Shown here in pieces: positions 2,639 through 31,370 of a stretch of 53,847 nucleotides of DNA. The number at the start of each line of letters is the position of its first letter. The stretch's first letter is position 1. Position numbers and translations under genes: made by a program. Source of the stretch: Rhodococcus maanshanensis NBRC 100610 (GTDB lineage Bacteria > Actinomycetota > Actinomycetes > Mycobacteriales > Mycobacteriaceae); NCBI RefSeq assembly GCF_001894865.1, contig NZ_BCXA01000001.1:1-53847 (forward strand). The letters are read 5' to 3'. The notes under the pieces are model-generated. The model did no database searches. It saw only the letters and a list, made by a program, of their open reading frames with translations, and had not been told where the DNA came from.

Positions 2639-2726
2639 CGAGTGTGCAGTGGGGGCACCTCCCTGCACGAAGTGCTTGGGGGAAGGTCGCATCGCCCGAG
2701 AGCGACCGGCGGAAACTGCACACTCG
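2639..2726. repeat. Dispersed palindromic repeat, copy 1 (composite)
   Basis: Perfect 12-bp inverted repeat CGAGTGTGCAGT (2639-2650) / ACTGCACACTCG (2715-2726), starting 3 nt after the tatD stop. The interior shares GCATCGCCCGAGAGCGACCG with copies 2 and 4. It also holds a 35-nt nested hairpin (about 2650-2685, GCAC-GAA-GTGC at its tip, flanked by C- and G-runs) that the other copies lack. Probably a terminator-like extragenic palindrome. Confidence 0.75.
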
Positions 2727-2758
2727 ACGAGTAGATTGGGCCGCACAGGTGACGACGA

Positions 2759-3295
2759 ATGCACGGGCTCACGAATTCGACTCCCGTCGACCGCGGCGTC
2801 GACGTCGTCGCCGTGCACGTCGCAGCATGGGAGATCGAGTGCTGCGCCCCGCCGCCCGAGGTGGGCCGCGAGGCGAGGTGGGTGCTCGCCTTCACCGCGG
2901 ACGACGCCGAGCCGGAGATCTTCCACCGACCGGTTCGCTGGGACCGCATCGGCAGCAAGCTCAGTGCAGGCGGCATCAGCGCCTACTGGCGGGATGCGCC
3001 GGATGACCTGTCCGACCATCCCACCGGGCTGCGCGGGCGGTTGTGGGGGACGGTGCACGGCGCGGACGTCCCGGATGGATTCGTCGGTACCACCGGCACG
3101 GTGATTAGCGTGTATCTGCTGGACGAGCTGTACCGCGAGGACGAGGCGGGCGTGTGGCGCCCGCTACCGGGGACCGAGGTGCGGACCTCGGTAGGGAAGA
3201 GTCCCAGTTGGTTCGGTGGCAGTGGGACATTCGTGTCAGGGATGGACTGCCGCAAGCAGACCGGGGTGGTGATGGAGCTGGCGGTCTCGGGCTGA
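2759..3295 (+). CDS. Hypothetical protein, possibly DUF6578-like
   Basis: 178-residue protein of unknown function with normal high-GC codon use. The segment AAWEIECCAPPPEVG near residues 23-37 is reminiscent of actinobacterial DUF6578 proteins, which begin with a WQxECCG-like motif; I recall this and cannot check it. No signal peptide or membrane helix is seen. It lies between two dispersed palindromes and converges on the ABC transporter genes. The ATG has no strong ribosome site, so a GTG near 2810 just before the conserved segment is an alternative start. Confidence 0.65.
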   Translation: MHGLTNSTPVDRGVDVVAVHVAAWEIECCAPPPEVGREARWVLAFTADDAEPEIFHRPVRWDRIGSKLSAGGISAYWRDAPDDLSDHPTGLRGRLWGTVHGADVPDGFVGTTGTVISVYLLDELYREDEAGVWRPLPGTEVRTSVGKSPSWFGGSGTFVSGMDCRKQTGVVMELAVSG

Positions 3296-3302
3296 CGCAG
3301 CC

Positions 3303-3363
3303 GCCGAGTGTGCAGTTGTTTGGGCATCGCCCGGGAGCGACCGACGACAACTGCACACTCGGC
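3303..3363. repeat. Dispersed palindromic repeat, copy 2
   Basis: Perfect 17-bp inverted repeat GCCGAGTGTGCAGTTGT (3303-3319) / 3347-3363 with a 27-nt loop containing GGGCATCGCCCGGGAGCGAC. It starts 7 nt after the stop at 3295 and ends 18 nt before the convergent ATPase stop, so it is placed to act as a bidirectional terminator. Confidence 0.8.
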
Positions 3364-3381
3364 GAGCGGCGGGGGTTCGGC

Positions 3382-4146
3382 TTACAGCACCTTCTTGAGG
3401 AAGTCCTGCGTGCGCGGATTCTGCGGGTTCCCGAACAGCTCCGCGGGGGTGCCCTCCTCGACGACGAACCCGTCGGCCATGAAGATCACCCGGTCGGACA
3501 CCTCGCGGGCGAAGCCCATCTCGTGGGTCACCACGACCATCGTCATGCCCTGGTCGGCGAGGTCGCGCAGCACCTGTAGCACCTCGCCGACCATCTCCGG
3601 GTCGAGTGCGCTGGTGGCCTCGTCGAACAGCATGATGTCCGGGTTCATGGCCAGCGCCCTGGCGATCGCCACACGCTGCTTCTGTCCACCAGAGAGATTG
3701 GCGGGCTTGGCGTTCGCCTTCTCGCCGAGACCCACCTGCTCGAGCAGTCTGAGCCCGGTGGCCCTTGCCTCCTCCTTGGTGGCTCGCTTGGTCTGCACCG
3801 GCGCCAGCATCACGTTCTCCAGCGCGGTCATGTGCGGGAAGAGATTGAAGTGCTGGAACACCATGCCGATGTGCTGGCGCACCTTGTCGATGTCGACCTT
3901 CTTGTCGGTCAGGTCGTAGCCGTCGACGATCACCGTGCCGTCGGTGATGTCCTCGAGCTTGTTCAGGCAGCGCAGGAAGGTGCTCTTGCCGGACCCGGAC
4001 GGCCCGATCACGCAGACCACCTCGCCGTTGGCGATGTCCACGTCGATGCCCTTGAGCACCTCGTTGTCCCCGTACGCCTTCTTGAGGCCGGAGACCTGAA
4101 TCTTGGTGGTGGGCGACGCAACCGGCGTCGCTGACGACTCCGTCAT
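3382..4146 (-). CDS. glnQ: Polar amino acid (glutamine-type) ABC transporter ATP-binding protein
   Basis: 254-residue ATPase of the polar amino acid uptake family that energises import by the binding-protein/permease fusion encoded just upstream. Walker [11 protein letters not shown]-loop [10 protein letters not shown], signature LSGGQKQR, Walker [14 protein letters not shown] and the switch histidine VTHEMGF are all present. ATG 4146 overlaps the upstream stop by 4 nt (ATGA), implying translational coupling. Glutamine or glutamate as substrate is inferred from family resemblance. Confidence 0.93.
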
Positions 4147-5600
4147 GCGTTGATCCTCTTTTCGAGCCGGTCGGACAGTTTGGTCAACGCCATGATGATG
4201 ACGAAGTAGAAGATGCCGACGATCAGCCACATGTTGAAGGACTCGAAGTTCCTCGCGATGATGATCTTGCCGGTCTGGGTGAGCTCGGCGATGCCGATCA
4301 CCGACAGGATCGAGGTGTCCTTGAGGGTGATGACCGCCTGGTTGACGAACGAGGGCATCATCGTGCGCACCGCCTGCGGCAGGACGACCTTGCGCATCGA
4401 GGCCATGTAGTTCATGCCGAGGCTGCGGGACGCCTCCATCTGGCCCTTGTCGACGGACTGGATGCCACCGCGGATGATCTCGGTGATGTAGGCGCCCGCG
4501 TTCAGGCTCAGTGTGATGACGCCCGCGGTGAACGCAGGCATCTGGAAGCCGAGCGCGGCCGGGATGCCGAAGTAGATGAAGAATGCCTGCACCAGCAGCG
4601 GGGTGCCGCGGAAGATGTCGACATAGGTGACGCCGATCGCGCGCAGGAACTTGCTGTGCGAGACCCGCAGGAACCCGAAGACCAGACCGAGCACCAGCGC
4701 GATCGCCAGCGACACCACGGTCAGCACGATGGTCATCCACAGGCCCTTGAGCAGCTGCGGGTAGGTGTCCTTGAGGAGCGAGAAGAAGTTGTTCCCGCCC
4801 TGGGCCTCCTGCGCACCCTCGCCGAGGTAGGTGTCGAGGATCTTGTCGTACTGCCCGCTGGCGCGCAGGTTCGCGAGCCCGGCGTTGAACTTCTCGATCA
4901 GTTCGGCGTTCTGGCCCTTGGAGACCGCGAACCCGTAGGAGTTGCCCGCCTCCTTCTCGCCGACCGCCTTGAGGCCGTTGCCCTGCGCGATGCCGTACAG
5001 CAGCACCGGGTAGTCGTCGAACACCGCGACCGAGTTACCGGTCTTGACGTCGTCGTACATGCTGGCGGAGTCGTCGAAGGTGACGGTGGTGAAGCCGTAC
5101 TTGTCCTTGATGGACTCGGCGAACATCGCGCCCTCGGTGCCGGTCTTGATCGCGACCCGCTTGCCCCTGAGGTCCTCGTAGGACTCGATGTCGTCGTTCG
5201 ACTTCGCGACCGCCATCTGGACGCCGGAGTCGAAGTAGGGATCGGAGAAGTCGAAGACCAGCTTGCGCTCGTCGGTGATCGACATGCCGGCGATGACGCC
5301 GTCGACCTGGCGCGACTGCAGCGCCTGGACGGCGGCGTTGAAGCCGAGCGGCTTGACCTGGTAGCGGAACCCCTGGTCCTCGGAGATGGCCTTGAGCAGG
5401 TCCATGTCGATGCCGACGAAGTCGCCCTGCTCGTTCTGGAACTCGAACGGGGCGAACGTCACGTCGGTGGCGATGACGTAGGTCTTGTCGGGGTCGGATT
5501 GCGCGTTGGCGGTTCCGGCTCCGAGGACGAGGGCGAGCAGGGCGAGGATGCCGATCACGACGGGTAGTCGGTCGAGTCTTCGGCGCGATTGTGTACGCAT
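4143..5600 (-). CDS. Amino acid ABC transporter: substrate-binding protein fused to permease
   Basis: About 485 residues, with two units normally made separately. An N-terminal signal/anchor helix (about 15-33) leads to a family 3 solute-binding domain (about 40-265, with [12 protein letters not shown] and [10 protein letters not shown]). A HisM/GlnP-type permease follows (about 285-485), with its EAA-loop segment [10 protein letters not shown] facing the ATPase. The binding domain would sit outside the membrane, tethered to its own channel. The fusion architecture is known in actinobacteria and Firmicutes. ATG 5600 is preferred because AGGA lies about 12 nt upstream; ATG 5612 is the alternative, giving 489 residues. 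Confidence 0.9.
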
Positions 5601-5731
5601 CCGCGTGAGCATTCCTGGTCACGATTGCGGGAGCAAACGACTCGGCCCTGTGTACCGATTTGAGACCTTTGTTTGCACTGGTCAGAGCCTCGCGGTTGCC
5701 AGGAGTCCCCGTGCTCGTTACCGTACTGTGA

Positions 5732-6910
<1,179 letters not shown>

Positions 6911-6981
6911 GTGTCGGATTTCGCGGCAGCTCGGCAGAGGCGATAGGTTCATCTCGTGACAAACCCCGAGGTGAACCCCCT

Positions 6982-7896
6982 GTGACCAGCCCCGAGGTGG
7001 ACCCCGCCGAGGGGAACCCGCGCGGCCAGGCCGCCCTGCTCGGCCCCATCGAGGTGCGCGCGCTGGCCGAAGAGCTGGGCGTGCGCCCCACCAAGCAGCT
7101 CGGCCAGAACTTCGTGCACGACGCCAACACGGTGCGCCGCATCGTGACCACGGCAGGCGTCGGGCGCGACGACGTGGTGCTCGAGGTCGGCCCCGGACTC
7201 GGTTCGTTGACCCTTGCTCTGATGGATGTGGTCGCCTCGGTGATCGCGGTGGAGATCGACCCGGTGCTCGCCGCCCGGCTCCCGACGACGGCGGCCGAGC
7301 GGGCTCCGGAACTCGCGGACCGGCTCACCGTGGTGGGCGCCGATGCCATGAAGGTGATGCCCGCCGACCTGCCCGCCGCGCCGACCGCGCTGGTCGCGAA
7401 CCTGCCGTACAACGTGGCGGTGCCCGTGCTGCTGCATCTGTTCTCCGAGTTCCCCAGCCTGCGCACCGCCCTGGTGATGGTGCAGGCGGAGGTCGCGGAC
7501 CGGCTCGCCGCCGTGCCCGGCAACAAGATCTACGGGGTGCCCAGCGTCAAGGCCCGGTTCTTCGGCGAGGTCCGGCGCGCGGGTGCCGTCGGCCGCCAGG
7601 TGTTCTGGCCGGTGCCGAAGGTGGAGTCAGGGCTGGTGCGGGTGGACCGCTACGCCGAGCCACCGTGGCCGATCGACGAGGAGCATCGGCATCGGGTGTT
7701 CGCCGTTGTCAATGCGGCCTTCGCGCAGCGCCGCAAGACGCTTCGTGCCGCGCTCGCCACCTGGGCGGGCTCGCCCGCCGAGGCCGAACGCCGACTGGTC
7801 GCGGCGGGGATCGACCCGTCCGCCCGCGGTGAGACGCTCGATGCGGCGGCCTATGTGCGACTGGCGGAGGTCGAGCCGCTCGACCCGATCGGATGA
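6982..7896 (+). CDS. ksgA: 16S rRNA (adenine(1518)-N(6)/adenine(1519)-N(6))-dimethyltransferase
   Basis: 304-residue SAM-dependent enzyme that dimethylates two adjacent adenosines in the 3' hairpin of 16S rRNA late in 30S maturation. It shows [14 protein letters not shown] at the N-terminus, the SAM motif [12 protein letters not shown] and the catalytic [14 protein letters not shown] 6982 is the first start before the conserved block; other in-frame starts are possible. Its last 35 codons recur in degenerate form at 8099-8206, and ispE, normally its neighbour, is 17 kb away. Confidence 0.96.
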
Positions 7897-7898
7897 CG

Positions 7899-7970
7899 CG
7901 GCGCTGACGTCGGAAGTGAGCTTCTTCGGAGCTCGCGTTCAACGAATTGCCAAGTGCGGCAGCGGTATGC
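7899..7970 (+). repeat. Direct repeat block A1 (partner at 8594-8668)
   Basis: Immediately after the ksgA stop, a roughly 72-bp block contains GCGGCGCTGACGTCGGA and ends AATTGCCAAGTGCGGCA. The same block with scattered differences is at 8594-8668, and its first part again at about 9009-9021. It marks duplication of a module in this patch. Confidence 0.6.
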
Positions 7971-7974
7971 GAAA

Positions 7975-8085
7975 CGCGTTGGGCGGCATAGGTGTGGCCC
8001 ATGCTCGGTGACCTGGTGTTTCCTGCCGCGTAGAGGCCGTCGATGACGGCGTCGTCCGTTCGCAACGCCCGGCCGGTGCTGCCGG
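7975..8085 (-). pseudogene. Remnant of a KstD-like FAD-dependent 3-ketosteroid dehydrogenase C-terminus
   Basis: On the minus strand about 35 codons read GRALRTDD then VIDGLYAAGN and MGHTYA, the signature near the C-terminus of flavoprotein 3-ketosteroid delta1-dehydrogenases and fumarate-reductase-like oxidoreductases. No start, FAD-binding N-terminus or intact remainder exists nearby. The fragment adjoins a ksgA-like fragment at 8099. The family assignment is from recalled motifs. Confidence 0.55.
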
Positions 8086-8098
8086 GTGTCGATGCCGC

Positions 8099-8206
8099 CC
8101 TGGTTCCGAGATGCGTCGCCGCCTGGTCGTTGCGGGCATCGAACCGTGCGCTCGAGGTGAGGTCTTGGACGCCGCCGCTCTCGTGAGGCCGGCGACCGTC
8201 GAATAG
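8099..8206 (+). pseudogene. Second, degenerate copy of the ksgA 3' end
   Basis: This segment encodes a C-terminal KsgA-like tail ending in a TAG at 8204-8206. RRLVVAGIEPCARGEVLDAA here corresponds to the ksgA tail [20 protein letters not shown]. The two copies match along their whole length at amino acid level but have many base differences. There is no methyltransferase domain, so it is a fragment. It suggests recombination at the ksgA 3' end with a diverged homologue. Confidence 0.65.
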
Positions 8207-8285
8207 TTCGGTGATTTGTTTGTGTTGAACGAATCATCATTTGCCGCAGGGATATTCGAATGCTGATGTGGGTCGGTGGCTTTGC

Positions 8286-8325
8286 CGGTAGGTTACCGCG
8301 CAGCGCCGGATCGGTGCTCTGACGG
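8286..8325 (+). repeat. Direct repeat block B1 (partner at 9203-9243)
   Basis: About 40 bp containing CGGTAGG and GCGCAGCGCCGG and ending CTGACGG recurs at 9203-9243 with roughly 80% identity by eye. Both copies lie shortly upstream of a small reading frame (8335 and 9287), so they may hold shared promoter sequence. Confidence 0.55.
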
Positions 8326-8334
8326 GTGGGTGAG

Positions 8335-8457
8335 ATGCATCGTCGGGTAATTCGCTGGCGAAAGGGCTTCGTTATGGGTTCGGTTGAAGGATTGCTCTGG
8401 TACTACCTCATGGGTGGAAGTACGGACCCTGAGGGAATGGGGCCGTACCAGGGCTAG
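8335..8457 (+). CDS. Possible 40-residue small protein
   Basis: An ATG at 8335 after a G-rich stretch (GGGTGGGTGAG) opens a 40-codon frame ending TAG 8457, with a basic N-terminus and a hydrophobic centre (GLLWYYLMGG). It sits downstream of repeat block B1, as the secreted-protein gene at 9287 sits downstream of B2. It could be a shortened relative or a chance frame. Function is unknown. Confidence 0.25.
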   Translation: MHRRVIRWRKGFVMGSVEGLLWYYLMGGSTDPEGMGPYQG

Positions 8458-8527
8458 GTGTTTGCCCAGGCGGGTTGGTCGAGAGATTGCGACGACACGC
8501 TGTAGCTGGTCGGTGAACAACGAAGGA

Positions 8528-8578
8528 CTCCCGTCGTGAAGTGGAGCTGCTATTACAGCCGCTTCACGAGGGCGGGAG
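8528..8578. terminator. Strong stem-loop in the ksgA-copA intergenic patch
   Basis: Arms 8528-8544 and 8559-8578 form about 17 base pairs with one GU pair and a 3-nt bulge, closing a 14-nt loop. There is no T-run, which is usual for actinobacteria. It lies 70 bp after the small frame at 8335-8457 and could terminate it. Confidence 0.45.
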
Positions 8579-8593
8579 ACTCTCGTGGCTGCC

Positions 8594-8668
8594 TCGCACT
8601 GACATCGGAGCCGGCTCCATTGGCCCCCGTTGCGTTTAGCAAATTGCCAAGTGCGGCAACAGTATCCG
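8594..8668 (+). repeat. Direct repeat block A2 (partner of 7899-7970)
   Basis: Carries CTGACATCGGA and then AATTGCCAAGTGCGGCA followed by a GTAT, matching block A1 about 690 bp upstream. It precedes the frameshifted secreted-protein gene. Confidence 0.6.
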
Positions 8669-8691
8669 GTCGTTCGTTCATGTGCATCACA

Positions 8692-8974
8692 AACTGATCG
8701 GAGTTCGAGATATGCACAGTTCCACGGCAGGTCGTCTTGCTTCCAGATTGTCGCCTCGGCCGTGCTGGTCGGTGGCCTCGCCGTCGGGGCAGGTGCTGCG
8801 TCCGCGGCACCCGCCGAAGCCCTCCCACCGGGAGGGTCCGTTGCCGTGGGCTTGCCCGACGGATCGGTGGATGGCTTCTTGGCGAACCCCCTCTATTTTC
8901 TCTTCAATCCGATCTTCGGGCTGGGTGGGAGTAGTCGGCCCTGCCCCGCTACCCCTGGTTGCGGCCAGATGTGA
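8692..8974 (+). pseudogene. Small secreted protein gene with an N-terminal frameshift
   Basis: ATG 8692 has a good ribosome site (GGAG, 8-nt spacing) and begins MHSSTAGRLAS. The hydrophobic signal core and AxA cleavage region (VLVGGLAVGAGAASA) continue in the next forward frame to TGA 8974. One inserted base near 8725-8730 would restore a signal peptide like that of the neighbour at 9287 (LLSGGLATGAGTASA). The predicted mature part is about 50 residues, with a central GFLANPLYFLFNP segment and two cysteines near the end. It is a disrupted gene or a sequencing error. Confidence 0.6.
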
Positions 8975-9082
8975 GGCTGAGTCGAATTTCACCCCGGTCG
9001 TGACCATGGCGCGGCGCTGACTTCCTAGACCGTGTTTCGAAAGTGGTTCCAGCGGTGGGAACCACACCAAGGCAGGCGTGTC

Positions 9083-9208
9083 GTGACAACTGAGAAACCG
9101 AGTTTCTGGGGAGTCCTGAGCTGTGTGGGATGTGCGTCCCCAATGGGTAGGCAAAACTCCGATGCAGGGTTGATCGAACCTGAGTCGTGTGGGGGCTCCA
9201 GTCGGTAG
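9083..9208 (+). other. Gap 8975-9286: weak 41-codon frame only
   Basis: The 312-bp gap between the two secreted-protein genes contains a GTG-initiated 41-codon frame (9083-9208) with no recognisable features and no clear ribosome site. It also holds repeat block B2 at 9203-9243. I see no convincing gene here; the stretch looks like the duplicated upstream region of the 9287 gene. Confidence 0.2.
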
Positions 9209-9243
9209 GGTCCGGCGCAGCGCCGGGTCGGCGCGGCTGACGG
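9203..9243 (+). repeat. Direct repeat block B2 (partner of 8286-8325)
   Basis: Matches block B1 with a one-base indel and several substitutions. It ends 43 bp before the start of the secreted-protein gene at 9287 and may include its promoter. Confidence 0.55.
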
Positions 9244-9286
9244 CCAAAAGAATTCGTCGTCGGTTCCCACTGCGAATGGAGTTGGA

Positions 9287-9550
9287 ATGTCTCGTTCGAT
9301 GAGGCGGCGTATCGCGTCGACCGTCACTGCGGCGGCGCTTCTGTCCGGTGGTCTGGCGACTGGTGCCGGCACCGCATCGGCAGAGAGCCCTCTGGACACC
9401 GGGAGTGCGGTCCTCGGGAACTTGATCTACGCGCCGATCGGTTCGGCCGATGTGGGCAGTGATCTCGCTGAGCTCGCGATTGCAAATCCGTACCAGACGA
9501 TCATGGTGATTCTGGTCGGTGGGTCCGTCGCCATCGACAACATCGGATAG
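9287..9550 (+). CDS. Small secreted protein of unknown function
   Basis: 87 residues. A basic N-terminus (SRSMRRR), a hydrophobic core and an AxA site (TASA, about residues 29-32) form a classical signal peptide, leaving a mature chain of about 55 residues. The mature part is mostly uncharged, with two hydrophobic stretches (SAVLGNLIYAPIGSA; TIMVILVGGSVAI), so it may associate with the envelope. GGAG lies just upstream of ATG 9287. Its signal peptide resembles that of the frameshifted gene at 8692, pointing to a duplicated family. Small envelope peptides are common in mycolic-acid bacteria, but no function is claimed. Confidence 0.6.
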   Translation: MSRSMRRRIASTVTAAALLSGGLATGAGTASAESPLDTGSAVLGNLIYAPIGSADVGSDLAELAIANPYQTIMVILVGGSVAIDNIG

Positions 9551-9555
9551 CCACG

Positions 9556-9595
9556 GTGTGCGAGTGTGGAAGCCCTGGCTCCCACACTCGCACAC
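9556..9595. terminator. Bidirectional terminator between the secreted-protein gene and copA
   Basis: Perfect 14-bp inverted repeat GTGTGCGAGTGTGG (9556-9569) / 9582-9595 with a 12-nt loop, centred between two convergent stop codons (9550 and 9609). Confidence 0.8.
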
Positions 9596-9608
9596 AGGCG
9601 CGGAGCGC

Positions 9609-11879
<2,271 letters not shown>

Positions 11880-11880
11880 G

Positions 11881-12762: not shown

Positions 12763-12770
12763 GGCCGTCC

Positions 12771-12980: not shown

Positions 12981-13004
12981 GTCGCTCTCCTCTGTGTGTG
13001 CCTC

Positions 13005-13021: not shown

Positions 13022-13041
13022 GGGTTCTTGCATGGATGAAG

Positions 13042-22672: not shown

Positions 22673-22907
22673 GGGTTACCGGCAGGCGAAGTTTCCATAT
22701 TGAGAAAGATGCTGTTACGGCGAGTATCGATTCCCTGGCGAGAACACATGATCTTGATATCTGCAGGTGAATGGATTGTGGCCCCGCGTGCCAAATCAAG
22801 TTGATCTTGGCGGGCGTCCGGCAGGCCCTGGACCTGGACATTTGCTCAAGTGGAATCCGATTTCCGAATGATGTAGAACGGGTCTCAAGCGCTACTGGTT
22901 CGTGATC

Positions 22908-22932
22908 TTTCTCACAGAATAACTGTGAGAAA
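22908..22932. promoter_or_regulatory. Inverted repeat upstream of the WS/DGAT gene
   Basis: Perfect 10-bp arms TTTCTCACAG (22908-22917) / CTGTGAGAAA (22923-22932) with a 5-bp spacer, 88 bp upstream of the WS/DGAT start. The AT-rich arms and promoter position favour an operator over a terminator. Confidence 0.5.
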
Positions 22933-23020
22933 TCGACACACCTGGAACGCCGGAATGACAGGTCCCCGGGGGACCGGATCCGCACGGTTCCGGGCACGGG
23001 ATTTCAGGAAAGAGGCGTCA

Positions 23021-24439
23021 ATGCTGCTGCCGATGTCACCCACCGACTCGATGTTCTTGCTGGGCGAGTCCCGAGAGCATCCGATGCACGTCGGGGGTCT
23101 GGCGCTGTTCACGCCGCCGGAGGGTGCGGGGGCGCGGGACGTGCGGGCGATGCTCGACGCGGCCTTCGCCAGGGGCGAGGTGTCGCCGTTGCTGCGCAAG
23201 CGGGCGCGGCGATCGGTGACCTCGCTCGGTCAGTGGGGCTGGGAGACCGACTCCGAGATCGACCTCGGCCACCACGTCAGCCACGAGGCGCTCCCGGCGC
23301 CAGGCGGGGTCACGGAGTTGCTCGAACTGGTGTCCCGCCTGCACGGCGGGCTGCTCGACCGCAGCCGCCCGCTGTGGGAGATGCACCTGATCGAGGGCCT
23401 CGAGGACGGCCGGTTCGCGGTGTACACGAAGATCCACCACGCCCTTGCTGACGGCGTGTCCGCGATGAAACTGCTGCGCAGCGCGCTCAGCGAGGATCCG
23501 GAGGCCCGCGAGATGCCCGCCCCGTGGGAGCCACTGGTGCGGGAGCGTCCCGCGCTCACGCTCGTCCCGGACGTGTCCGAGGGGGCCGTGGTCGAGCCCT
23601 CCAGGAGTGGCCCCCTCGACCTGGCGTCGGCGGTCCTGCGCGTCGCGCGTGGCGCCGTCGGCGAGGCCGTCGGCCTCCTGCCCGCGCTTGCGGGCACGGT
23701 CGACCGGGCCAGGAACGACCGCGGCGGTTCGCTCTCCTTCGCCGCGCCCAGCAGCATCTTCAACGTGCAGATCGGGGGTGCTCGGCGGTTCGCGGCGCAG
23801 TCATGGCCGATCGAGCGGCTGCGGCTGGTCGCGAAATGCGGCGACGCCACCATCAACGACGTGGTGCTGGCGATGTGCGCGGGCGCGCTGCGCGCCTACA
23901 TGGACGAACTCGACGCGCTGCCCGCCGACCCGCTGATCGCGATGGTGCCGGTCTCGTTGCGGCGTGAACAGCCGGAGGCCAAGGCGGGCAACGAGATCGG
24001 GCTGCTCATGTGCAATCTCGCCACGCACCTCGACGATCCGGCGGCCCGGCTCGACACGGTGCGCACCGCCATGCGCGAGGGGAAGGACTCGATGCGCACC
24101 ATGAGCACGGCGCAGGTCCTGGCCACCAGCGCGCTCGGTGTCGCCCCGTTGGCGCTCGGCATGTTCGGCCTCGGCGGGCCGATCCGCCCCGCGAACGTGA
24201 TGGTCTCCAATGTGCCCGGTCCCGGGACACCCCTGTACTGGAACGGCGCTCGGTTGAGCGCGCTCTACCCGCTGTCGATCCCGGTCGACGGGCAGGCCCT
24301 GAACATCACCTGCACCAGCACCGACGACGAGATCGCGTTCGGGTTGACCGGCTGCCGCCGCAGTGTGCCGCCGTTGCAGCCACTACTCGGATATCTCGAC
24401 GACGAGCTCGCCGCGCTCGAGCGAGCCGTCGGTTTGTGA
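23021..24439 (+). CDS. Wax ester synthase / diacylglycerol acyltransferase (WS/DGAT)
   Basis: 472-residue acyltransferase that joins an acyl-CoA to diacylglycerol or a fatty alcohol, forming storage triacylglycerol or wax esters at the membrane/lipid-droplet surface. The catalytic motif HHALADG lies near residue 138. PLWEMHLIEGL before it and NVMVSNVPGP near 390 are further family landmarks. ATG 23021 is chosen over upstream in-frame starts because the family begins close to LLPMSPTDSMFLLGE and GGAAAGAGG precedes it. Divergence from the carboxylase suggests coordinated lipid synthesis. Confidence 0.93.
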   Translation: MLLPMSPTDSMFLLGESREHPMHVGGLALFTPPEGAGARDVRAMLDAAFARGEVSPLLRKRARRSVTSLGQWGWETDSEIDLGHHVSHEALPAPGGVTELLELVSRLHGGLLDRSRPLWEMHLIEGLEDGRFAVYTKIHHALADGVSAMKLLRSALSEDPEAREMPAPWEPLVRERPALTLVPDVSEGAVVEPSRSGPLDLASAVLRVARGAVGEAVGLLPALAGTVDRARNDRGGSLSFAAPSSIFNVQIGGARRFAAQSWPIERLRLVAKCGDATINDVVLAMCAGALRAYMDELDALPADPLIAMVPVSLRREQPEAKAGNEIGLLMCNLATHLDDPAARLDTVRTAMREGKDSMRTMSTAQVLATSALGVAPLALGMFGLGGPIRPANVMVSNVPGPGTPLYWNGARLSALYPLSIPVDGQALNITCTSTDDEIAFGLTGCRRSVPPLQPLLGYLDDELAALERAVGL

Positions 24440-24464
24440 AACCGCAGAGGGAAAGGACGATGCA

Positions 24465-24665
24465 ATGCAGCTCACCGCACATGACCAGTCCCTGTTTCCA
24501 GATGATCCCGCGCCACACCGGGTCCGCTCTGCCGTGGCCATCGCGATGGGGTCGGCCGTTCCCGCCACGGCGTCGGCCGTCCTGGTGACCGGGTCCGGCA
24601 CCACCGGTGTGCTGACCGGAGCCTTCACCATCGCCTGCGTGGCGGTGGCGGCCCTGATCATCTAG
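24465..24665 (+). CDS. Small membrane protein downstream of WS/DGAT
   Basis: 66 residues. A short polar N-terminus is followed by two hydrophobic stretches ([19 protein letters not shown] and [17 protein letters not shown]), so it probably spans the membrane twice or forms a hairpin. It begins 25 nt after the WS/DGAT stop with AGAGGGAAAGG just upstream, so co-transcription is likely. I do not recognise a family. Confidence 0.55.
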
Positions 24666-24672
24666 GCCCGGC

Positions 24673-25098
24673 TCACTCGATCGGCCCGGCCAGCATCCAC
24701 CGGTGACCGAAAGGGTCCACCAGGGTGGCCCCGCGATGGCCGTTCTCGGTCGCCGGCTCGCGTTCGACGGTCGCGCCCGTCGCCCGCGCCCGCTCCAGGA
24801 TGGCGTCGGTGTCGGTGACCGGCAGCATGAGGCTCACCCCGGAACGGCCGGGGGCGGGCGCGGTGAAGCCGATCTCCGGGAACTCGTCGGCCAGATACAG
24901 CGTGCCGTCGCCGATCGCCAGCTCGCAGTGCCCGACCCGGCCGTCGGGCATCATCACCGGCTCGCCGTCGACGCGGGCGCCGAAGGCCTCGGCGTACCAC
25001 TCGATCGCGCGGCGGGCGTCGGGCACGGACAGGTAGGGCAGGGCAGCGGGCCGCGGCACCACGGTCCGCTGCAGGTCGGGGTCGCGGGGATCGGTCAT
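24673..25098 (-). CDS. VOC (glyoxalase/bleomycin-resistance fold) family protein
   Basis: 141 residues with the paired beta-alpha-beta-beta-beta pattern of PhnB-like VOC proteins. It starts around [21 protein letters not shown], with [20 protein letters not shown] in the middle and [12 protein letters not shown] at the end. It may bind a metal and act on a small molecule or give resistance; no specific reaction can be assigned. ATG 25098 is chosen because GAGGAGCC precedes it. It converges on the small membrane-protein gene with 7 nt between stops. Confidence 0.85.
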
Positions 25099-25191
25099 TT
25101 CGGCTCCTCGGTGGGTAGGCGGCGTCCACCACCATGGTGGTCCCATCGGCGCGGTCATCGGACCGCATTTGTTCCACTACGCTGGTGCCTT

Positions 25192-26121
25192 GTGCTGTCC
25201 GCTGTTCCTCGCCCGGTGATCGTCCGGGCACCGTCGAAGGTCAATCTGCACCTCGGCGTCGGTGACCTGCGCGAAGACGGCTATCACGAGCTCACCTCGG
25301 TCTTCCAGGCGCTCTCGCTGCACGACGACGTCGAGGTCAGCGACGCCGACGAGCTCTCGGTCGCGGTGCACGGCGAGAGCGCGCGGGTGGTGCCGACCGA
25401 CCGGCGCAACCTGGTCTGGCAGGCGGCCGAGCTGCTCGCCGAGCGGGCGGGCCGGGACCCCGCGGTCGCGATCACGATCGCGAAGGGCATCCCGGTCGCG
25501 GGTGGCATGGCGGGCGGCAGCGCCGACGCCGCGGCGACGCTGGTCGCCCTCGACGAGCTCTGGGAGCTCGGCCTCGAGCGCGTCGATCTGGACGAGTACG
25601 CGGCCCGGCTCGGCAGCGACGTGCCGTTCTCGCTGCGCGGCGGCACCGCGATCGGTACCGGTCGCGGGGAGAAGCTGCTGCCGGTGCTGTCCCGCAACAC
25701 CTTTCACTGGGTTCTCGCGCTCGCCAAGGGCGGGCTGCGGACCCCGGACGTGTTCCGCGAGCTGGACTGGCTGCGGGCCGAGGGCGCCCCGCCCCGGCTC
25801 GGGGACCCCGACGAGCTGATGCACGCGCTGGCCGTCGGCGATCCCCATCAGCTCGCGCCCCTGCTCGGCAACGACCTGCAGCCCGCGGCGCTGTCCCTCA
25901 AGCCGGAGCTGCGCCGGACCCTGCGGGCCGGCACCGCCGCGGGTGCCCTGGCCGGCATCGTCTCTGGCTCGGGGCCCACCTGTGCCTTTCTCTGCGCGGA
26001 CGCCGACGCGGCCGTGGCGGTCAGCGCGGAACTGGCGGGCGCGGGCGTCTGCCGGACCGTGCGAACAGCCCACGGACCGGTGCCCGGTGCCCGCGTGATC
26101 GACGACAAGACGGAGCGCTGA
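25192..26121 (+). CDS. ispE: 4-diphosphocytidyl-2-C-methyl-D-erythritol kinase
   Basis: 309-residue GHMP kinase of the non-mevalonate (MEP) isoprenoid pathway that phosphorylates CDP-ME. It shows [11 protein letters not shown] at the N-terminus, the ATP loop [17 protein letters not shown] near residue 100 and the C-terminal [12 protein letters not shown] 25192 is the start nearest the conserved N-terminus. It overlaps the ABC-F gene by one base (TGATG). In mycobacteria it follows ksgA directly; here 17 kb intervene. Confidence 0.95.
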
Positions 26122-27893
26122 TGGCGAATCTGATCAATCTGGAGCAGGTCTCGAAGTCGTTCGGGATCAAACCGCTGCTCGACTCGGTGTCGCTCGGCGT
26201 CCAGGAGGGCGAGCGGATCGGTGTCGTCGGCCTCAACGGCGGCGGCAAGACCACCATGCTCGAGGTGCTCGCAGGCCTCGAGCCGCCGGACTCCGGCAGG
26301 GTGAGCCGGGTTGGCGGACTGCGGATGGCCGTGGTCACCCAGCGCGGCGTGCTGCCCGCGGGCTCGACCGTCGCGGACGTGGTGCTGGCCCCGCTCGGGG
26401 TCGCCGAGCACGAGTGGGCTGGCGACGCGCGGATCCGATCGATCCTCGCGGGCATCGGCGTCGACTCGGTCGGCCTGGAAGCGAAGGTCGACGGGCTGTC
26501 CGGCGGCGAGCGGCGCCGCGTCGCGCTCGCGGCCGCGCTGGTCCAGGACCTCGACCTGCTGGTGCTCGACGAGCCGACCAACCATCTCGACGTCGAGGGC
26601 GTGCAGTGGCTGGCCGAGCATCTCGTCGGCAGGCGCAGTGCCCTGGTCGTGGTGACCCACGACCGGTGGTTCCTCGACACCGTCGCCACCCGCACCTGGG
26701 AGGTCGTCGGCGGCAATGTCGAGACCTACGAGGGCGGCTACGGCGACTGGATCTTCGCCAGGGCCGAGCGGGCCCGGCAGGCGGACGCGGCCGAGGACCG
26801 GCGCCGGAACCTGGCCCGGAAGGAACTGGCCTGGCTGCGCCGTGGCCCGCCGGCCCGGACCTCCAAGCCGCGCTACCGGATCGAGGCGGCCGAGGCGCTC
26901 ATCGCCGACGTGCCGCCGCCGCGCGACAACGTCGCGCTGGCCTCGTTCGCGCAGCGTCGGCTCGGCAAGGTCGTCATCGAGCTCGAGAACGCCACCATCT
27001 CGACCCCCGACGGTCGGGAGCTCGTGCACGACCTGACGTGGCGGCTTGCCCCTGGCGAACGCATCGGCCTTGTCGGCGTCAACGGCTCCGGCAAGACCAC
27101 GCTGCTGCGTACCCTTGCCGGCGAGATCGCGCCGTCGACGGGCAAGCGCATCGAGGGCAAGACGGTCAAGATCGGTTGGCTCCGACAGGAACTCGACGAT
27201 CTCCCGACCGACATGCGGGTGCTCGAGGCGGTCAAGGACGTCGCCGAGCGGATCGTGCTGGGAGACCGTGAGGTCTCGGCCGGTCAGCTCGCCGAGCGGC
27301 TGGGCTTCACCCCGGCCCGTCAACGGACCCCGGTTGGCGACCTGTCCGGCGGCGAGCGCCGCAGGCTGCAGCTCACCCGTGTGCTGATGTCGGAGCCGAA
27401 CGTGCTCTTGCTCGACGAGCCGACGAACGACCTGGACATCGACACCCTCCAGCAGCTCGAGGACATCCTCGACGGCTGGGCGGGGACGATGGTCGTGATC
27501 AGTCACGACCGGTTCCTGATCGAACGGCTCTGCGACTCCACCTGGGCGCTGTTCGGCGACGGCAAGCTCACCAACCTGCCCGGCGGCATCGCGGAGTACC
27601 TGCGTCGGCGCGAGCAGGTCGTGGCGATCGCGGCTCCTGGGCCCGCGCCGGTGACGACGCCGACCACGGCGCGCGACGGCGCGGCCGACCGGGCCGCCCG
27701 CAAGGAACTGAGCAAGCTGGAGCGTCAGGTCAGCAAGCTCGACGAGCGGGAGACCACGCTGCACGCGGCGCTGGTCGAGGCCGCCACGGACCCGCAGCGG
27801 TTGCAGTCGCTCGACGCGGAGCTGCGGCAGGTGCTGGCCGACAAGGAGGCCGCGGAGGAGCGCTGGATGGAGTTGGCCGCCGAGCTGGAATGA
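26121..27893 (+). CDS. ABC-F family ATPase (Uup/EttA-like ribosome-associated)
   Basis: 590 residues with two soluble ABC domains and no membrane helices. Walker A motifs are GLNGGGKTT and GVNGSGKTT, LSGGERRR occurs twice, and Walker B segments end LDEPTNHLD and LDEPTNDLD. A charged C-terminal coiled coil (about 520-590) resembles Uup. ABC-F proteins act on ribosomes to relieve stalled or antibiotic-bound translation. It is translationally coupled to ispE. It could be a housekeeping factor; nothing points to a specific antibiotic. Confidence 0.92.
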   Translation: MANLINLEQVSKSFGIKPLLDSVSLGVQEGERIGVVGLNGGGKTTMLEVLAGLEPPDSGRVSRVGGLRMAVVTQRGVLPAGSTVADVVLAPLGVAEHEWAGDARIRSILAGIGVDSVGLEAKVDGLSGGERRRVALAAALVQDLDLLVLDEPTNHLDVEGVQWLAEHLVGRRSALVVVTHDRWFLDTVATRTWEVVGGNVETYEGGYGDWIFARAERARQADAAEDRRRNLARKELAWLRRGPPARTSKPRYRIEAAEALIADVPPPRDNVALASFAQRRLGKVVIELENATISTPDGRELVHDLTWRLAPGERIGLVGVNGSGKTTLLRTLAGEIAPSTGKRIEGKTVKIGWLRQELDDLPTDMRVLEAVKDVAERIVLGDREVSAGQLAERLGFTPARQRTPVGDLSGGERRRLQLTRVLMSEPNVLLLDEPTNDLDIDTLQQLEDILDGWAGTMVVISHDRFLIERLCDSTWALFGDGKLTNLPGGIAEYLRRREQVVAIAAPGPAPVTTPTTARDGAADRAARKELSKLERQVSKLDERETTLHAALVEAATDPQRLQSLDAELRQVLADKEAAEERWMELAAELE

Positions 27894-27994
27894 ACCGGGG
27901 CTCACCCATTCCGGTCTCCTCGCCGAGCGAAGGCGACTAGTCTGCGATGCAGGTCAGTATCTGTGCATGAGTCCCGTCATGGAAGGCGTGCATC

Positions 27995-28483
27995 ATGGAT
28001 CTGGAGGCCGTCGCCGAGATCTGCCGACTCAAATACCGGTACACCCGCGCGCTGGACACGAAGGATTGGGCCACGTTCCGCGACACCCTGTTGCCCGACG
28101 CGACGGCGACCTACGGCGAGCATCTCCGGTTCGAGGATCGCGATGCGCTGGTCTCCTTCATGGAGATCACGCTCGCCCCGCACGTGCTGACCGAGCACCT
28201 GACCGGGCAGCCCGAGATCGAGGTGGACGGTGACACCGCGTCCGGGGTCTGGGTGCTCTCGGACACGGTGATCATCCCGGAGGACGGGATGCTGCTGCGC
28301 GGTGCGGCGTTCTATCACGACCGGTACGCCAGGGGCGCGGACGGACGATGGCGCATCTCGCACACGGGCTACGAGCGCACCTACGAGGTGGTCATCTCCC
28401 TCGCCGACATCCCGAGCTTCCAGGTCACCTCGAGCCGGTGGGCGCTCTCGGTGACCCCGTCCGCCACCCAGGCCACCGCCTGA
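27995..28483 (+). CDS. SnoaL-like / NTF2-fold protein
   Basis: 162 residues of the SnoaL_4 type: N-terminal helix with LKYRYTRALDTKDWATFRDTLLPDA, a central beta-sheet (GVWVLSDTVIIPEDGML) and RGAAFYHDRYARGADGRWRI. Members act as isomerases, hydratases or dehydratases on small hydrophobic molecules, or as ligand-binding proteins. The specific role is unknown. Confidence 0.82.
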   Translation: MDLEAVAEICRLKYRYTRALDTKDWATFRDTLLPDATATYGEHLRFEDRDALVSFMEITLAPHVLTEHLTGQPEIEVDGDTASGVWVLSDTVIIPEDGMLLRGAAFYHDRYARGADGRWRISHTGYERTYEVVISLADIPSFQVTSSRWALSVTPSATQATA

Positions 28484-28490
28484 CGGAGGC

Positions 28491-28563
28491 CCGCGGGTCG
28501 AATCGTGCTCGGAGCGAGGACCTCTCGGTCGGTGGTGTGTCCTCGCGGTGCGCGGACCCGCGG
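28491..28563 (+). terminator. Nested hairpin downstream of the SnoaL-like gene
   Basis: Outer arms 28491-28499 / 28555-28563 (CCGCGGGTC) enclose a second stem 28514-28521 / 28539-28546 (GCGAGGAC). It ends 20 bp before the next start and probably terminates the upstream transcript. Confidence 0.45.
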
Positions 28564-28582
28564 TCGGGCCTAGGGTTCTAGC

Positions 28583-29287
28583 GTGCCCGACATCGCGCCC
28601 CGGTCCTCGTTCGCCGACACCCGCGCGTGGCTGCGCGCCCTGCCTGCCCTCACGGCAACCGCGGTGGCGGCCGATGCCCTGGACCCGTCGCCGACCCCGT
28701 CGCCGTTGTTCCTGCGCTGGCTCGAGGACGCGGTCGCGGCGGGAGTGCCGGAACCCCAGTCCGCCGTGCTGTCCACGACGGAGGACGACGGCCGGGTCGA
28801 TGCCCGGGTCCTCATCCTCAAGGATGTCGACGAGCGGGGCTGGTGGTTCTCGGGCTCGGTGGACTCGCCGAAGGGGCGTCAGCTGGCGGCGAACCCCTCG
28901 GCGGCGTTGACCTTCTACTGGGCCGGAGTGGGCAGGCAGGTCCGGGTGCGCGGCCGGGCCGAGCCGGGGGAGGCGGGGGTGAGCGCGCGGGACTACGTCG
29001 AACGGTCGGTGACCGCCCGTGCGGTGGCCGCGGCCAGCAGGCAGAGCGAGGTGCTGGCCGATCCGGCCGAGTACGACCGAGCGGTCGCCGAGATGGTCGC
29101 CCGGATCGAGGCCGATCCGGGCACCGTCGCGCCGGCCTGGCAGGCTTGGTGCCTGGTCCCGGACAGCGTGGAATTCTGGCTCGCCGACCCGGGGCGCAGA
29201 CACCAACGGTTGCGGTACCGGCGGCCCAGGTGGCCGTCCGCGGGGTGGTCGACCACTGAGTGGATTACGGACGTCCTGTGGCCGTGA
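28583..29287 (+). CDS. Pyridoxamine 5'-phosphate oxidase family protein (PdxH-like)
   Basis: 234 residues with the FMN split-barrel pattern of PNP/PMP oxidase: RVLILKDVDERGWWFSGS for FMN/substrate binding, SPKGRQLAANPSAALTFYW, RQVRVRGRAE, and a C-terminal WLADPGRRHQRLRYRR like the PLP-binding tail of PdxH. It would oxidise pyridoxamine/pyridoxine phosphate to PLP using O2. Genomes of this group usually have a clearer PdxH elsewhere, so this may be a paralogue. GTG 28583 is the start. Confidence 0.82.
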   Translation: MPDIAPRSSFADTRAWLRALPALTATAVAADALDPSPTPSPLFLRWLEDAVAAGVPEPQSAVLSTTEDDGRVDARVLILKDVDERGWWFSGSVDSPKGRQLAANPSAALTFYWAGVGRQVRVRGRAEPGEAGVSARDYVERSVTARAVAAASRQSEVLADPAEYDRAVAEMVARIEADPGTVAPAWQAWCLVPDSVEFWLADPGRRHQRLRYRRPRWPSAGWSTTEWITDVLWP

Positions 29288-29313
29288 CCGAGAACATTTG
29301 AACGGGAGTGTGC

Positions 29314-30312
29314 ATGAGCTTCATCCGGACCAACGTCGCAGGCGGCGTCGGCGAGATCGTGCTGGACCGACCGAAGGCGCTCAACGCCCTCGACCCGAGC
29401 ATGATCCGCGACCTGTACGAGCCGCTGCTGCGCTGGCGCGACGACCCCGCGGTCGAGACGGTCCTGGTGACCAGCGGTTCCGAGCGGGCGTTCTGCGCGG
29501 GTGGCGACATCAAGGCCGTGCGGGAGGCGGTGCTGCGCGGCGATCGGGAGTTCGTGCACGGGTTCTTCGCCGACGAGTACCGGCTCAATCTGCTGATCGG
29601 CGAGTACCCGAAGCCCTACATCTCGCTGATCGACGGCGCCGCGATGGGCGGCGGGCTCGGCATCTCGGTGCACGGCTCGGTCCGGGTGGTGACCGAGCAG
29701 GCGGTGCTGGCGATGCCGGAGACCGCGATCGGGTTCTTCCCCGACATCGGAGCCAGCCACTTCCTGCCGCGGCTGACCGGCGCGGCCGGGATGTACCTCG
29801 GGCTCACCGGTGCAAGGGCATCGGCGGGTGACGCTGTCGCATTCGGGCTGGCGACGCATTTCGTGCCGAGCGAGCGGCTGGCGGAGCTGGCCGACGCGAT
29901 CCGCGGTGGGTCGGCCGCCGAGGCGCTGGAGAAGTTCGGCGAGCAGGCCCCCGACGCGCCGCTGGCCGCGCGGCAGGCGGAGATCGACGAGGTGTTCGCG
30001 CAGGGCACCCCTGCGGACATGCTGGCCCGGCTGACCGGGGACGACGAGTGGACGGCGCAGGCGAGGACCGCGCTGACCGCGGTGTCGCCGACCGCCGCCT
30101 TCATCACCGCGGAGCTGATCCGGCGCGGCGCGGGCGACGGGCTGTCGCAGTGCCTCGATCGTGAGCTGGCGCTGACCGGCCCGGTGACCGCGGGGCCCGA
30201 CTTCGCCGAGGGCGTGCGGGCGGTGCTGGTCGACAAGGACCGCAACCCGTCCTGGTCGCCGTCGAGCCTCGCCGAGGTGGACCGGGACGTGATCGCCGCG
30301 CTGTTCGACTAG
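29314..30312 (+). CDS. 3-hydroxyisobutyryl-CoA hydrolase (crotonase superfamily)
   Basis: 332 residues. It has crotonase oxyanion-hole motifs ERAFCAGGDIKAV and DGAAMGGGLGISVHG, and the hydrolase-subfamily marker ETAIGFFPDIGASHFL. The length exceeds that of simple enoyl-CoA hydratases and fits HIBYL-CoA hydrolase, which releases 3-hydroxyisobutyrate in valine breakdown. ATG 29314 with GGGAG seven bases upstream is preferred to GTG 29308. A dispersed palindrome begins 9 nt after the stop. Confidence 0.88.
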   Translation: MSFIRTNVAGGVGEIVLDRPKALNALDPSMIRDLYEPLLRWRDDPAVETVLVTSGSERAFCAGGDIKAVREAVLRGDREFVHGFFADEYRLNLLIGEYPKPYISLIDGAAMGGGLGISVHGSVRVVTEQAVLAMPETAIGFFPDIGASHFLPRLTGAAGMYLGLTGARASAGDAVAFGLATHFVPSERLAELADAIRGGSAAEALEKFGEQAPDAPLAARQAEIDEVFAQGTPADMLARLTGDDEWTAQARTALTAVSPTAAFITAELIRRGAGDGLSQCLDRELALTGPVTAGPDFAEGVRAVLVDKDRNPSWSPSSLAEVDRDVIAALFD

Positions 30313-30321
30313 CCCCGCCCG

Positions 30322-30390
30322 CCCCGCCGAGTGTGCAGTTGCTGTCGTCCCTTCCCGGGCGACGCCCCGGCAGATGCACACTCGGCGGGG
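30322..30390. repeat. Dispersed palindromic repeat, copy 3
   Basis: Perfect 16-bp inverted repeat CCCCGCCGAGTGTGCA (30322-30337) / 30375-30390. The interior matches the reverse complement of copy 2 (TGTCGTC, then CCCGGGCGACGCCCC), so it lies in the opposite orientation. It starts 9 nt after the hydrolase stop. Confidence 0.8.
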
Positions 30391-30447
30391 GTCGGGGGCG
30401 CGCGGATAGCATCGATTCCGCCATCCCAACCGGAGGAGCCAGCAATC

Positions 30448-31302
30448 GTGATCACCGAGATCCTCGCCCGTGCGGCGCTGAGCCCGATCCCGTCCGCCCG
30501 GGCGATCGCCGCGAAGATCCTGCCGATGCGCGAGCACCGGATCGAGGGCAAGCGGATTCTGCTGACCGGGGCGTCGTCCGGGGTGGGGGAGGCGGCCGCG
30601 CGGCGCCTCGCCGCCGAGGGCGCCGAGCTGATCCTCGTCGCGCGCGGCGCCGAGGCGCTCGAGGCCGTGCGCGACGAGATCGTGGGTGAGGGCGGGACCG
30701 CGCACGCGGTGCCATGCGACCTCACCGATGCCGACGACGTGGACCGGCTCCGGACCCTCGTCCGCGACGAACTCGGCCCCGTCGACGTGCTCGTCAACAA
30801 CGCGGGCCGGTCGATCCGCCGGCCGGTCGAGGACTCGCTCGACCGGTTCCACGACTTCGAGCGCACCATGGCCCTGAACTACTTCGGCCCGGTGCGGCTC
30901 ACCCTCGCGCTGCTGCCGGAGATGCTCGAGCGAGGGCAGGGACACGTGGTCAACGTGGCCACCTGGGGCGTGCCGGGCGGCGTCATGCCCAAGTTCGCGG
31001 CGTACCACGCGTCGAAGTCCGCGGTCAGCGCGTTCGGGCGCGACCTTGGCGCCGAGCTCGAGGGCCGCGGGGTGTCCGTGACGACAGTGCACTTCCCGCT
31101 GATCCGCACCCCGATGATCGCGCCGACCAAGGACTACGACTCGATGCCCGCGCTCGCCCCGGAGGACGCGGCGTCGTGGCTGGTCACCGCGATCCGCACC
31201 CGGCCGGTCGAACTGCTCCCGACCTATGCGGAGCTGCTGCGGTTCCTGGACAACTTCGCCCCGACGGTCACCGACGCCCTCGTCAGGCGTGCCGGGATCT
31301 GA
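30448..31302 (+). CDS. Short-chain dehydrogenase/reductase
   Basis: 284-residue classical SDR. The Rossmann motif is TGASSGVGEAAA, followed by CDLTDADD, NNAG and the catalytic YHASK. An N-terminal extension of about 30 residues precedes the fold. GTG 30448 is chosen because CGGAGGAG lies 10 nt upstream. Its substrate is unknown; related proteins reduce lipid or fatty-acyl carbonyls. Confidence 0.88.
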   Translation: MITEILARAALSPIPSARAIAAKILPMREHRIEGKRILLTGASSGVGEAAARRLAAEGAELILVARGAEALEAVRDEIVGEGGTAHAVPCDLTDADDVDRLRTLVRDELGPVDVLVNNAGRSIRRPVEDSLDRFHDFERTMALNYFGPVRLTLALLPEMLERGQGHVVNVATWGVPGGVMPKFAAYHASKSAVSAFGRDLGAELEGRGVSVTTVHFPLIRTPMIAPTKDYDSMPALAPEDAASWLVTAIRTRPVELLPTYAELLRFLDNFAPTVTDALVRRAGI

Positions 31303-31313
31303 CCGCCGCCGGT

Positions 31314-31370
31314 CGAGTGTGCACCTATCGGGGCATCGCCCGAGTGGCGGCGACCGCAGGTGCACACTCG
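31314..31370. repeat. Dispersed palindromic repeat, copy 4, forming the 3' end of prrB
   Basis: Perfect 13-bp inverted repeat CGAGTGTGCACCT (31314-31326) / 31358-31370, with GGGGCATCGCCCGAGTGGCG in the loop. It starts 11 nt after the SDR stop, and on the other strand it encodes the last residues and stop codon of prrB. Confidence 0.8.

What the first reader, a model, noticed from the sequence alone, without database searches (positions are those of the whole stretch)
2639..31370. Four-copy family of dispersed palindromes placed directly after stop codons
Copies at 2639-2726, 3303-3363, 30322-30390 and 31314-31370 share arms GCCGAGTGTGCA/TGCACACTCGGC and an interior GGGCATCGCCCG-x-GAGCGACCG. 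Copies 1, 2 and 4 have one orientation and copy 3 the other. They start 3, 7, 9 and 11 nt after plus-strand stop codons. Ordinary terminators would not share arms and loop, so this is a homologous mobile or copied element, REP/MITE-like, possibly serving as a terminator. Shared sequence is seen directly; mobility and function are inference.
Basis: partly seen in the sequence, partly recalled or inferred. Interest (0 to 1): 0.7.

Follow-up and report, generated by a model that had tools for sequence, protein, structure and literature searches.

The report
Fixed-length palindromes after actinobacterial genes
Many actinobacteria carry repeated DNA palindromes of almost constant length (about 57 bases) right after the ends of genes, probably acting as end-of-gene hairpins; their fixed size and shared ends and centre suggest that something specific recognises them.

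Summary
The four copies belong to a family with 47 copies of exactly 57 nt in this 5.67-Mb genome (<=3 arm mismatches; reversed-pattern control 0), plus one 56-nt copy and the 88-nt copy 1. The same design, CGAG(T/C)GTG - about 40 nt - CAC(A/G)CTCG, recurs patchily across Actinomycetes with lineage-specific inner arms and a mostly conserved central CG. Copies lie a median 11 nt from a stop codon and avoid divergent spacers; two tandem copies follow each of three rRNA-operon ends. Of 40 sites compared with a sister species 35 keep the element; three of the five others hold an unrelated hairpin. Three of 29 are flipped in place. There is no U-tract, no RAYT transposase, no Rfam match. Best reading: a repeated, U-less ('I-shaped'-type) 3'-end hairpin, mainly inherited vertically, with flips and paired arm changes from template switching. 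A plain terminator does not explain the fixed length, ends and centre, which hint at a recognition factor. REP/RAYT-type mobility is not supported. Function is inferred; 3'-end mapping would decide.

The parts
2639..2726 (+). Palindrome copy 1: 88-nt variant, a 57-nt element with about 31 nt extra near its left arm; 3 nt after the stop of a TatD-type DNase gene, tandem context
2650..2684 (+). Extra piece TGGGGGCACCTCCC...CTTGGGGGAA (approximate limits) inside copy 1; absent from the sister-species ortholog, which is a plain 57-mer with both arms of the C/G type
   Evidence: L197:2384-2440
3305..3361 (+). Palindrome copy 2, 57 nt, between convergent genes (DUF6578 gene and ABC-transporter ATPase gene)
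30328..30384 (-). Palindrome copy 3, 57 nt, interior in the opposite orientation, between tandem ECH_2 and short-chain dehydrogenase genes; an element is also present at this place in G250 and G652, not in G654, G653 or G651
31314..31370 (+). Palindrome copy 4, 57 nt, between convergent dehydrogenase and histidine-kinase genes; the reverse gene's predicted stop lies inside the element

Best explanation
These are members of a family of repeated 3'-end hairpins, recurring across Actinomycetes, that act as transcription-unit boundaries: the RNA copied from either strand folds into a long stem-loop just behind the stop codon, which ends or protects the transcript without a U-tract (the 'I-shaped' kind described for mycobacteria). 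Shown: the family, its fixed length, its place after stop codons, its avoidance of promoter-side spacers, retention in a sister species, and unrelated hairpins at three orthologous sites that lack it. Inferred: that the hairpin forms in RNA and ends or stabilises transcripts. Also inferred: that the fixed length, ends and centre reflect recognition by a factor not yet identified. In-place flips and paired arm changes are best explained as template-switch by-products of a palindrome.
For: Placement: 23 tandem, 16 convergent, 1 divergent, 1 inside an ORF and 7 at edges among 48 copies of this genome; 37 of the 39 tandem or convergent copies within 50 nt of a stop, one of these overlapping the gene end by 46 nt, median distance 11. 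Palindrome spacers are divergent in 1 of 37 against 47 of 114 others, p=3e-6. Elsewhere: sister species 2 divergent of 35, other genomes 5 of 60 with a clear context (includes 2 clear-context copies of G595 later rejected), C-type mycobacterial elements 1 of 42, named loci 9 of 95. Two tandem copies follow each of three rRNA-operon ends that I saw, two with 5S found by Rfam and the third recognised by the same downstream hairpin; one copy follows a superoxide dismutase gene. Of the five sites empty in the sister species, L032:5018 and L174:3039 hold unrelated long hairpins there (-46.6 and -47.9 kcal/mol) and L032:4318 a smaller one (-31.5). Other gene ends of this genome carry strong unique hairpins too: z<-2 in 28% of 58 tandem and 4 of 9 convergent spacers without the family, against 4% of 127 coding and 6% of 47 divergent stretches. 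Mean fold energy of 34 elements -31 kcal/mol. U-less terminators within 50 bp of stop codons are described for mycobacteria (PMC12288462, passages read). Arm homogenisation and spacer inversion by template switching between inverted repeats: PMC8604942, start of abstract in a listing.
Against: No U-tract: T is depleted behind the elements (0.095 in 21 tandem copies against 0.151 in the window) and the terminator scan finds nothing at the four sites. Whether U-less hairpins terminate in mycobacteria is disputed: a paper title cited in PMC12288462 says a U-tract is required. In this genome and its sister the two halves of an element are no more complementary than random halves (p=0.94 and 0.72), and fold energy does not beat half-swapped elements. 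G-U does not clearly exceed A-C on the transcript strand (24/16 and 19/17; 33/24). Tandem spacers with the family are no more often extreme in fold z-score than those without (30% of 23 against 28% of 58). The three rRNA operons already have their own hairpin. A plain terminator needs neither near-invariant ends nor a fixed length.
Confidence: 0.5

Rival explanations
1. A DNA-level site: a dimeric or tetrameric protein binds the two ends, with conserved centre and rigid spacing, as a roadblock, insulator or chromosome-organising site at gene ends, with no RNA hairpin needed.
For: Length 57 nt in 30 of 31 hits when 44-74 was allowed, 56-60 nt in listed hits when 52-62 was allowed, while inner arms are free; ends near-invariant over 30 sequences; CG in the central 6 nt in 206 of 241 elements; no half-half covariation in G000, G250, G307, G347; little strand bias of wobble pairs.
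Against: Unrelated hairpins at three sister-species sites; clear covariation in G080 (254 pairs against 235.5 sd 3.9, 0 of 2000 shuffles); the centre is not special in G523 (3 of 10) and hardly in G080, where control windows reach 0.83; no binding protein identified or searched for; orientation bias in tandem spacers of C-type elements (16 against 3) and of this genome (16:5, p=0.027).
Confidence: 0.25
2. A REP/MITE-like mobile or recently mobile element copied by a transposase, with gene-end placement due to selection against other insertions.
For: Homologous dispersed copies with lineage-specific flavours and two subfamilies in some genomes; in-place flips in 3 of 29 orthologs; presence/absence at 5 of 40 sites.
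Against: No Y1_Tnp in 11 of 12 genomes, a fragment in the twelfth; other transposase families were not searched for; no direct target repeats seen by eye; 35 of 40 sites retained between species 88-96% identical in aligned stretches.
Confidence: 0.15
3. A recombination or gene-exchange site (integron-like in effect): genes are gained and lost at the palindrome edges.
For: 8 of 15 gene-content breaks between the two species, in 29 locus pairs, lie within 50 bp of a palindrome edge, on 4% of the aligned sequence (8 against 38 palindrome spacers, 7 against 129 others, p=0.007). A 9.5-kb mce-type operon lies between two copies in G250 and is absent in G000, where one copy remains.
Against: Loci were chosen around palindromes. 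In the mce case the remaining copy matches the first copy over its whole length (sequences compared by eye), so the exchange is at the arm edge, as expected of ordinary recombination between short repeats. No recombinase searched for; transcription-unit ends are natural boundaries for gene gain and loss.
Confidence: 0.07

Closest known systems
U-less ('I-shaped') intrinsic terminators of mycobacteria (Unniraman 2001; Ahmad 2020; as cited in PMC12288462, passages read)
   Same: Stable hairpin without U-tract within 50 bp behind stop codons in high-GC actinobacteria
   Different: Those are described by structure; here many copies share ends, centre and length
REP elements / RAYT system (features recalled, and PMC3733652 abstract start in a listing)
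   Same: Short palindromes in many copies at gene ends, a constant tag with lineage-specific arms
   Different: Symmetric ends on both sides, about 57 rather than 20-40 nt, no RAYT gene found
Uptake-sequence terminators of Haemophilus (described in PMC5217627, passages read)
   Same: Inverted pair of a conserved 9-10-mer behind genes
   Different: The half-site hardly occurs singly here: 12 of 67 half-sites lay outside exact pairs, 11 of them in 57-nt pairs with 1-2 mismatches and one in copy 1; spacing is fixed
Spaced palindromes found statistically (PMC5217627, e.g. GAATCCAT-N23-ATGGATTC near 3' ends in B. japonicum) and the Myt-1 stem-loop family of M. tuberculosis (72 nt, 75 copies; PMC2267715); passages read of both
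   Same: Repeated palindromes or stem-loops of unknown function, the first near 3' ends
   Different: Different motif (PMC5217627); Myt-1's sequence is not in the passages read, so identity could not be tested
Integron attC sites (recalled)
   Same: Imperfect palindromes of 57 nt or more behind stop codons, conserved ends, variable arms
   Different: Dispersed rather than arrayed, different ends; no integron integrase was searched for

Membership tests
U-less (I-shaped) intrinsic terminator | Strong hairpin within 50 nt of the stop codon | tested here: met
   median 11 nt, 37 of 39 tandem or convergent copies within 50 nt; mean -31 kcal/mol
U-less (I-shaped) intrinsic terminator | No U-tract | tested here: met
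   T fraction 0.095 over 12 nt downstream in 21 tandem copies
U-less (I-shaped) intrinsic terminator | Ends transcription | not testable with these tools
   needs Term-seq or a read-through reporter
Canonical intrinsic terminator | Hairpin followed by a U-tract | tested here: not met
REP/RAYT | RAYT (Y1_Tnp) gene in the genome | tested here: not met
   no match in 11 of 12 genomes; 30 of 121 positions in G595, over the cut-off but in a 1137-aa frame
REP/RAYT | 20-40 nt palindrome with a one-sided tetranucleotide tag | tested here: not met
   57 nt with symmetric ends
MITE | Terminal inverted repeats | tested here: met
MITE | Target-site duplications and recent insertion polymorphism | tested here: inconclusive
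   flanks read by eye show none; site L168:4532 differs without a clean junction
Uptake-sequence terminator | Many single copies of the half-site besides the pairs | tested here: not met
   67 half-sites; the 12 outside exact pairs are halves of degenerate pairs or of copy 1
Integron attC | Integron integrase and cassette array | not tested
   no search for an integrase was made; copies are dispersed over many contigs
Rfam families | Match to a curated RNA family | tested here: not met
   0 in the window at gathering score; in 10 other loci one miRNA match of 24.2 bits against a cut-off of 142

The most novel reading that the evidence does not exclude
The elements are tripartite sites (end, centre CG, end, at about 57 nt) read by a dedicated, still unknown actinobacterial factor that ends or insulates transcription units in a sequence- and length-specific, strand-symmetric way: a termination or boundary system distinct from both Rho-dependent and U-tract termination.
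Probability: 0.22. Interest if true: 0.88.

Novelty: new variant of a known kind. Interest (0 to 1): 0.6.

Why it matters
How GC-rich actinobacteria, mycobacteria included, end transcripts without U-tracts is disputed. This family offers, in some genomes, dozens of natural, sequence-matched sites, kept at orthologous places and sometimes replaced by unrelated hairpins, on which U-less termination can be tested directly. If a factor reads the ends and centre, it would be a new class of boundary signal. The elements are also apparent hot spots of gene gain and loss.

Tried and rejected
Rfam scans: nothing relevant. Sequence-string searches of papers (one search listed 30 of 679 papers): no paper on this motif in the listings. 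Topic searches: none in the listings either. So 'not described' rests on these searches of open-licence papers. Virus collection: 4 hits with little inner pairing by eye, taken as chance. G595 copies: rejected because they sit in longer interspersed repeats, with matches of up to about 1.7 kb between loci; 5 of them are in the counts. 15 of the loci were set aside by me as probable chance hits (13 outside Actinomycetota, plus Embleya and Collinsella); their centre CG count is 8 of 15, and one search left out two further loci labelled Bifidobacterium breve. RNA-only reading through G-U excess: no clear support. Excess half-half pairing in G226 and G523 was discounted because each holds two subfamilies. 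Arm conservation (13 of 480 arm against 121 of 888 inner positions, 24 usable pairs of 31) is biased because most sister loci were fetched for exact arms; not used as proof. Motif orientation over all groups is only borderline (23:11, p=0.058).

Full report
OBSERVATION. The window holds four copies of a palindrome with core CGAGTGTGCA...TGCACACTCG. Three are exactly 57 nt; copy 1 is 88 nt. In the whole genome (5.67 Mb, 96 contigs) the exact arms occur 30 times, control 0; with the gap free between 28 and 58 there are 31 hits, all 57 nt but one of 56; with up to 3 mismatches at 57 nt there are 47, of which 29 have none, 11 one, 6 two and 1 three. The sharp fall with mismatch number and the near-absence of other lengths show that arms and length are constrained.

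DISTRIBUTION. In 298 genomes of the order, CGAGTGTGC-N34..44-GCACACTCG is present in 23, in 6 of 76 genera; listed hits are 56-60 nt where 52-62 was allowed; the reversed control hits once, in G026. Allowing the paired change at position 5 (CGAGYGTGC...GCACRCTCG) gives 48 of 298 genomes and 11 of 76 genera, up to 53 copies in G178, many genomes outside the family with a single hit, control again one hit in G026. In 394 genomes of the class CGAGTGTG-N38..43-CACACTCG is present in 26, in 10 of 138 genera, control one hit in G350. In the genus the 2-mismatch pattern counts 46, 44, 1, 14, 0 and 10 in its six genomes. The 10-12 nt inside the arms are lineage-specific.

ANATOMY. On 30 chosen sequences from several lineages, the outer nine positions on each side are invariant except position 5, and two central columns (C, G) are 90% or more. 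CG lies in the central 6 nt in 206 of 241 elements; CG is found in 0.36-0.83 of control windows inside the arms depending on the set, so the centre is not special in G080 (0.83), and G523 is an exception with 3 of 10. Position 5 is mostly T with A opposite or C with G opposite: in the 89 places listed (a part of all) I count by hand 63 C/G, 18 T/A and 8 hybrids; in this genome the counts are 30 T/A, 2 C/G and 4 hybrids of 36. Copy 1 is T/A here and C/G at both arms in the sister species. Within a genome halves are mostly shuffled freely: no excess complementarity in G000 (215 against 227.6 sd 8.2, 34 elements), G250 (21), G307 (6) or G347 (11), a clear one in G080 (18), and an excess in G226 (15) and G523 (10) that two subfamilies can explain.

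PLACE. Gene calls are from my own codon-model script. Of 48 copies in this genome 23 are tandem, 16 convergent, 1 divergent, 1 inside an ORF, 7 at edges (six of them behind rRNA operons). The nearest upstream stop is a median 11 nt away for the 39 tandem or convergent copies, 37 within 50 nt. Divergent spacers are avoided (1 of 37 against 47 of 114, p=3e-6), and in other lineages too. Each of three rRNA-operon ends that I saw has two tandem copies behind the operon's own hairpin.

EVOLUTION. Against G250 (aligned stretches 88-96% identical), 40 of 46 copies were compared; the six rRNA copies were not. 29 were matched by their flanks, 26 in the same and 3 in flipped orientation, one of them an exact reverse complement. 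Two more are retained beside changed neighbours (L034:4995 and L172:3064) and four more were found by flank search, one of which (L170:3014) lies inside an ORF. Five are missing: L032:4318, L032:5018, L168:4532, L169:5617, L174:3039. At L032:5018 and L174:3039 the sister species has unrelated long hairpins, at L032:4318 a smaller one. The spacer with copy 3 has an element in G000, G250 and G652 but not in G654, G653 or G651. Flips and double arm changes are what template switching between inverted-repeat arms produces (PMC8604942, start of abstract seen). 8 of 15 gene-content breaks lie within 50 bp of an element edge, among them a 9.5-kb mce-type operon (MlaE and Mce4_CUP1 domains in the two proteins scanned).

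INTERPRETATION. Place, retention, and unrelated hairpins at empty sites favour a 3'-end hairpin function. The absence of a U-tract puts the elements with the U-less terminators reported for mycobacteria within 50 bp of stop codons (PMC12288462, passages read), a class whose activity is contested in papers cited there. Such a class does not predict a family with common ends, centre and length. Three things could give this: a recognition factor, common descent with local copying, or DNA-level binding. Orientation of the asymmetric centre relative to transcription is biased in this genome (16:5, p=0.027) and in C-type mycobacterial elements (16:3) but not in the T-type elements tested elsewhere (7:8), so I do not lean on it.

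NOVELTY. REP/RAYT membership fails on the RAYT gene and on size and symmetry. Canonical terminator membership fails on the U-tract. I file it as a new variant of a known kind (U-less 3'-end hairpins / repeated intergenic palindromes). No description of this motif was seen in the listings of the searches named, which cover open-licence papers only.

Noticed in passing
window 2650-2684: Copy 1 carries about 31 nt extra with a GGGGGCACCTCCC...GGGGGA hairpin, absent from the sister species; in the 299 loci held the pattern occurred only in the two loci covering this place.
   Followed up: partly
L239 (G250:C23:352500-363000): An mce-type operon (MlaE permease and Mce4_CUP1 domains) lies between two palindromes in the sister species and is missing at the orthologous place in this genome.
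   Followed up: partly
L035, L037, L042: Three rRNA-operon ends share one hairpin followed by two tandem palindromes with about 19-nt spacers.
   Followed up: partly
L255-L259, L209, L215, L221 (G595): Longer interspersed repeats of G595 contain a fixed 57-nt CGAGTGTG...CACACTCG segment, possibly unrelated to the palindromes.
   Followed up: partly
window 39542-39597 and 46712-46749: Other strong inverted repeats behind or near gene ends with unique sequence, for example CGCGCCGGACCCGCAC / GTGTGGGTCCGGCGCG.
   Followed up: no
G043 elements, e.g. G043:C7:24116-24171: In some mycobacteria the inner arms repeat the half-site (GCGGCCAGCCGCAC...GTGCGGCTGGCCGC), giving nested palindromes.
   Followed up: no
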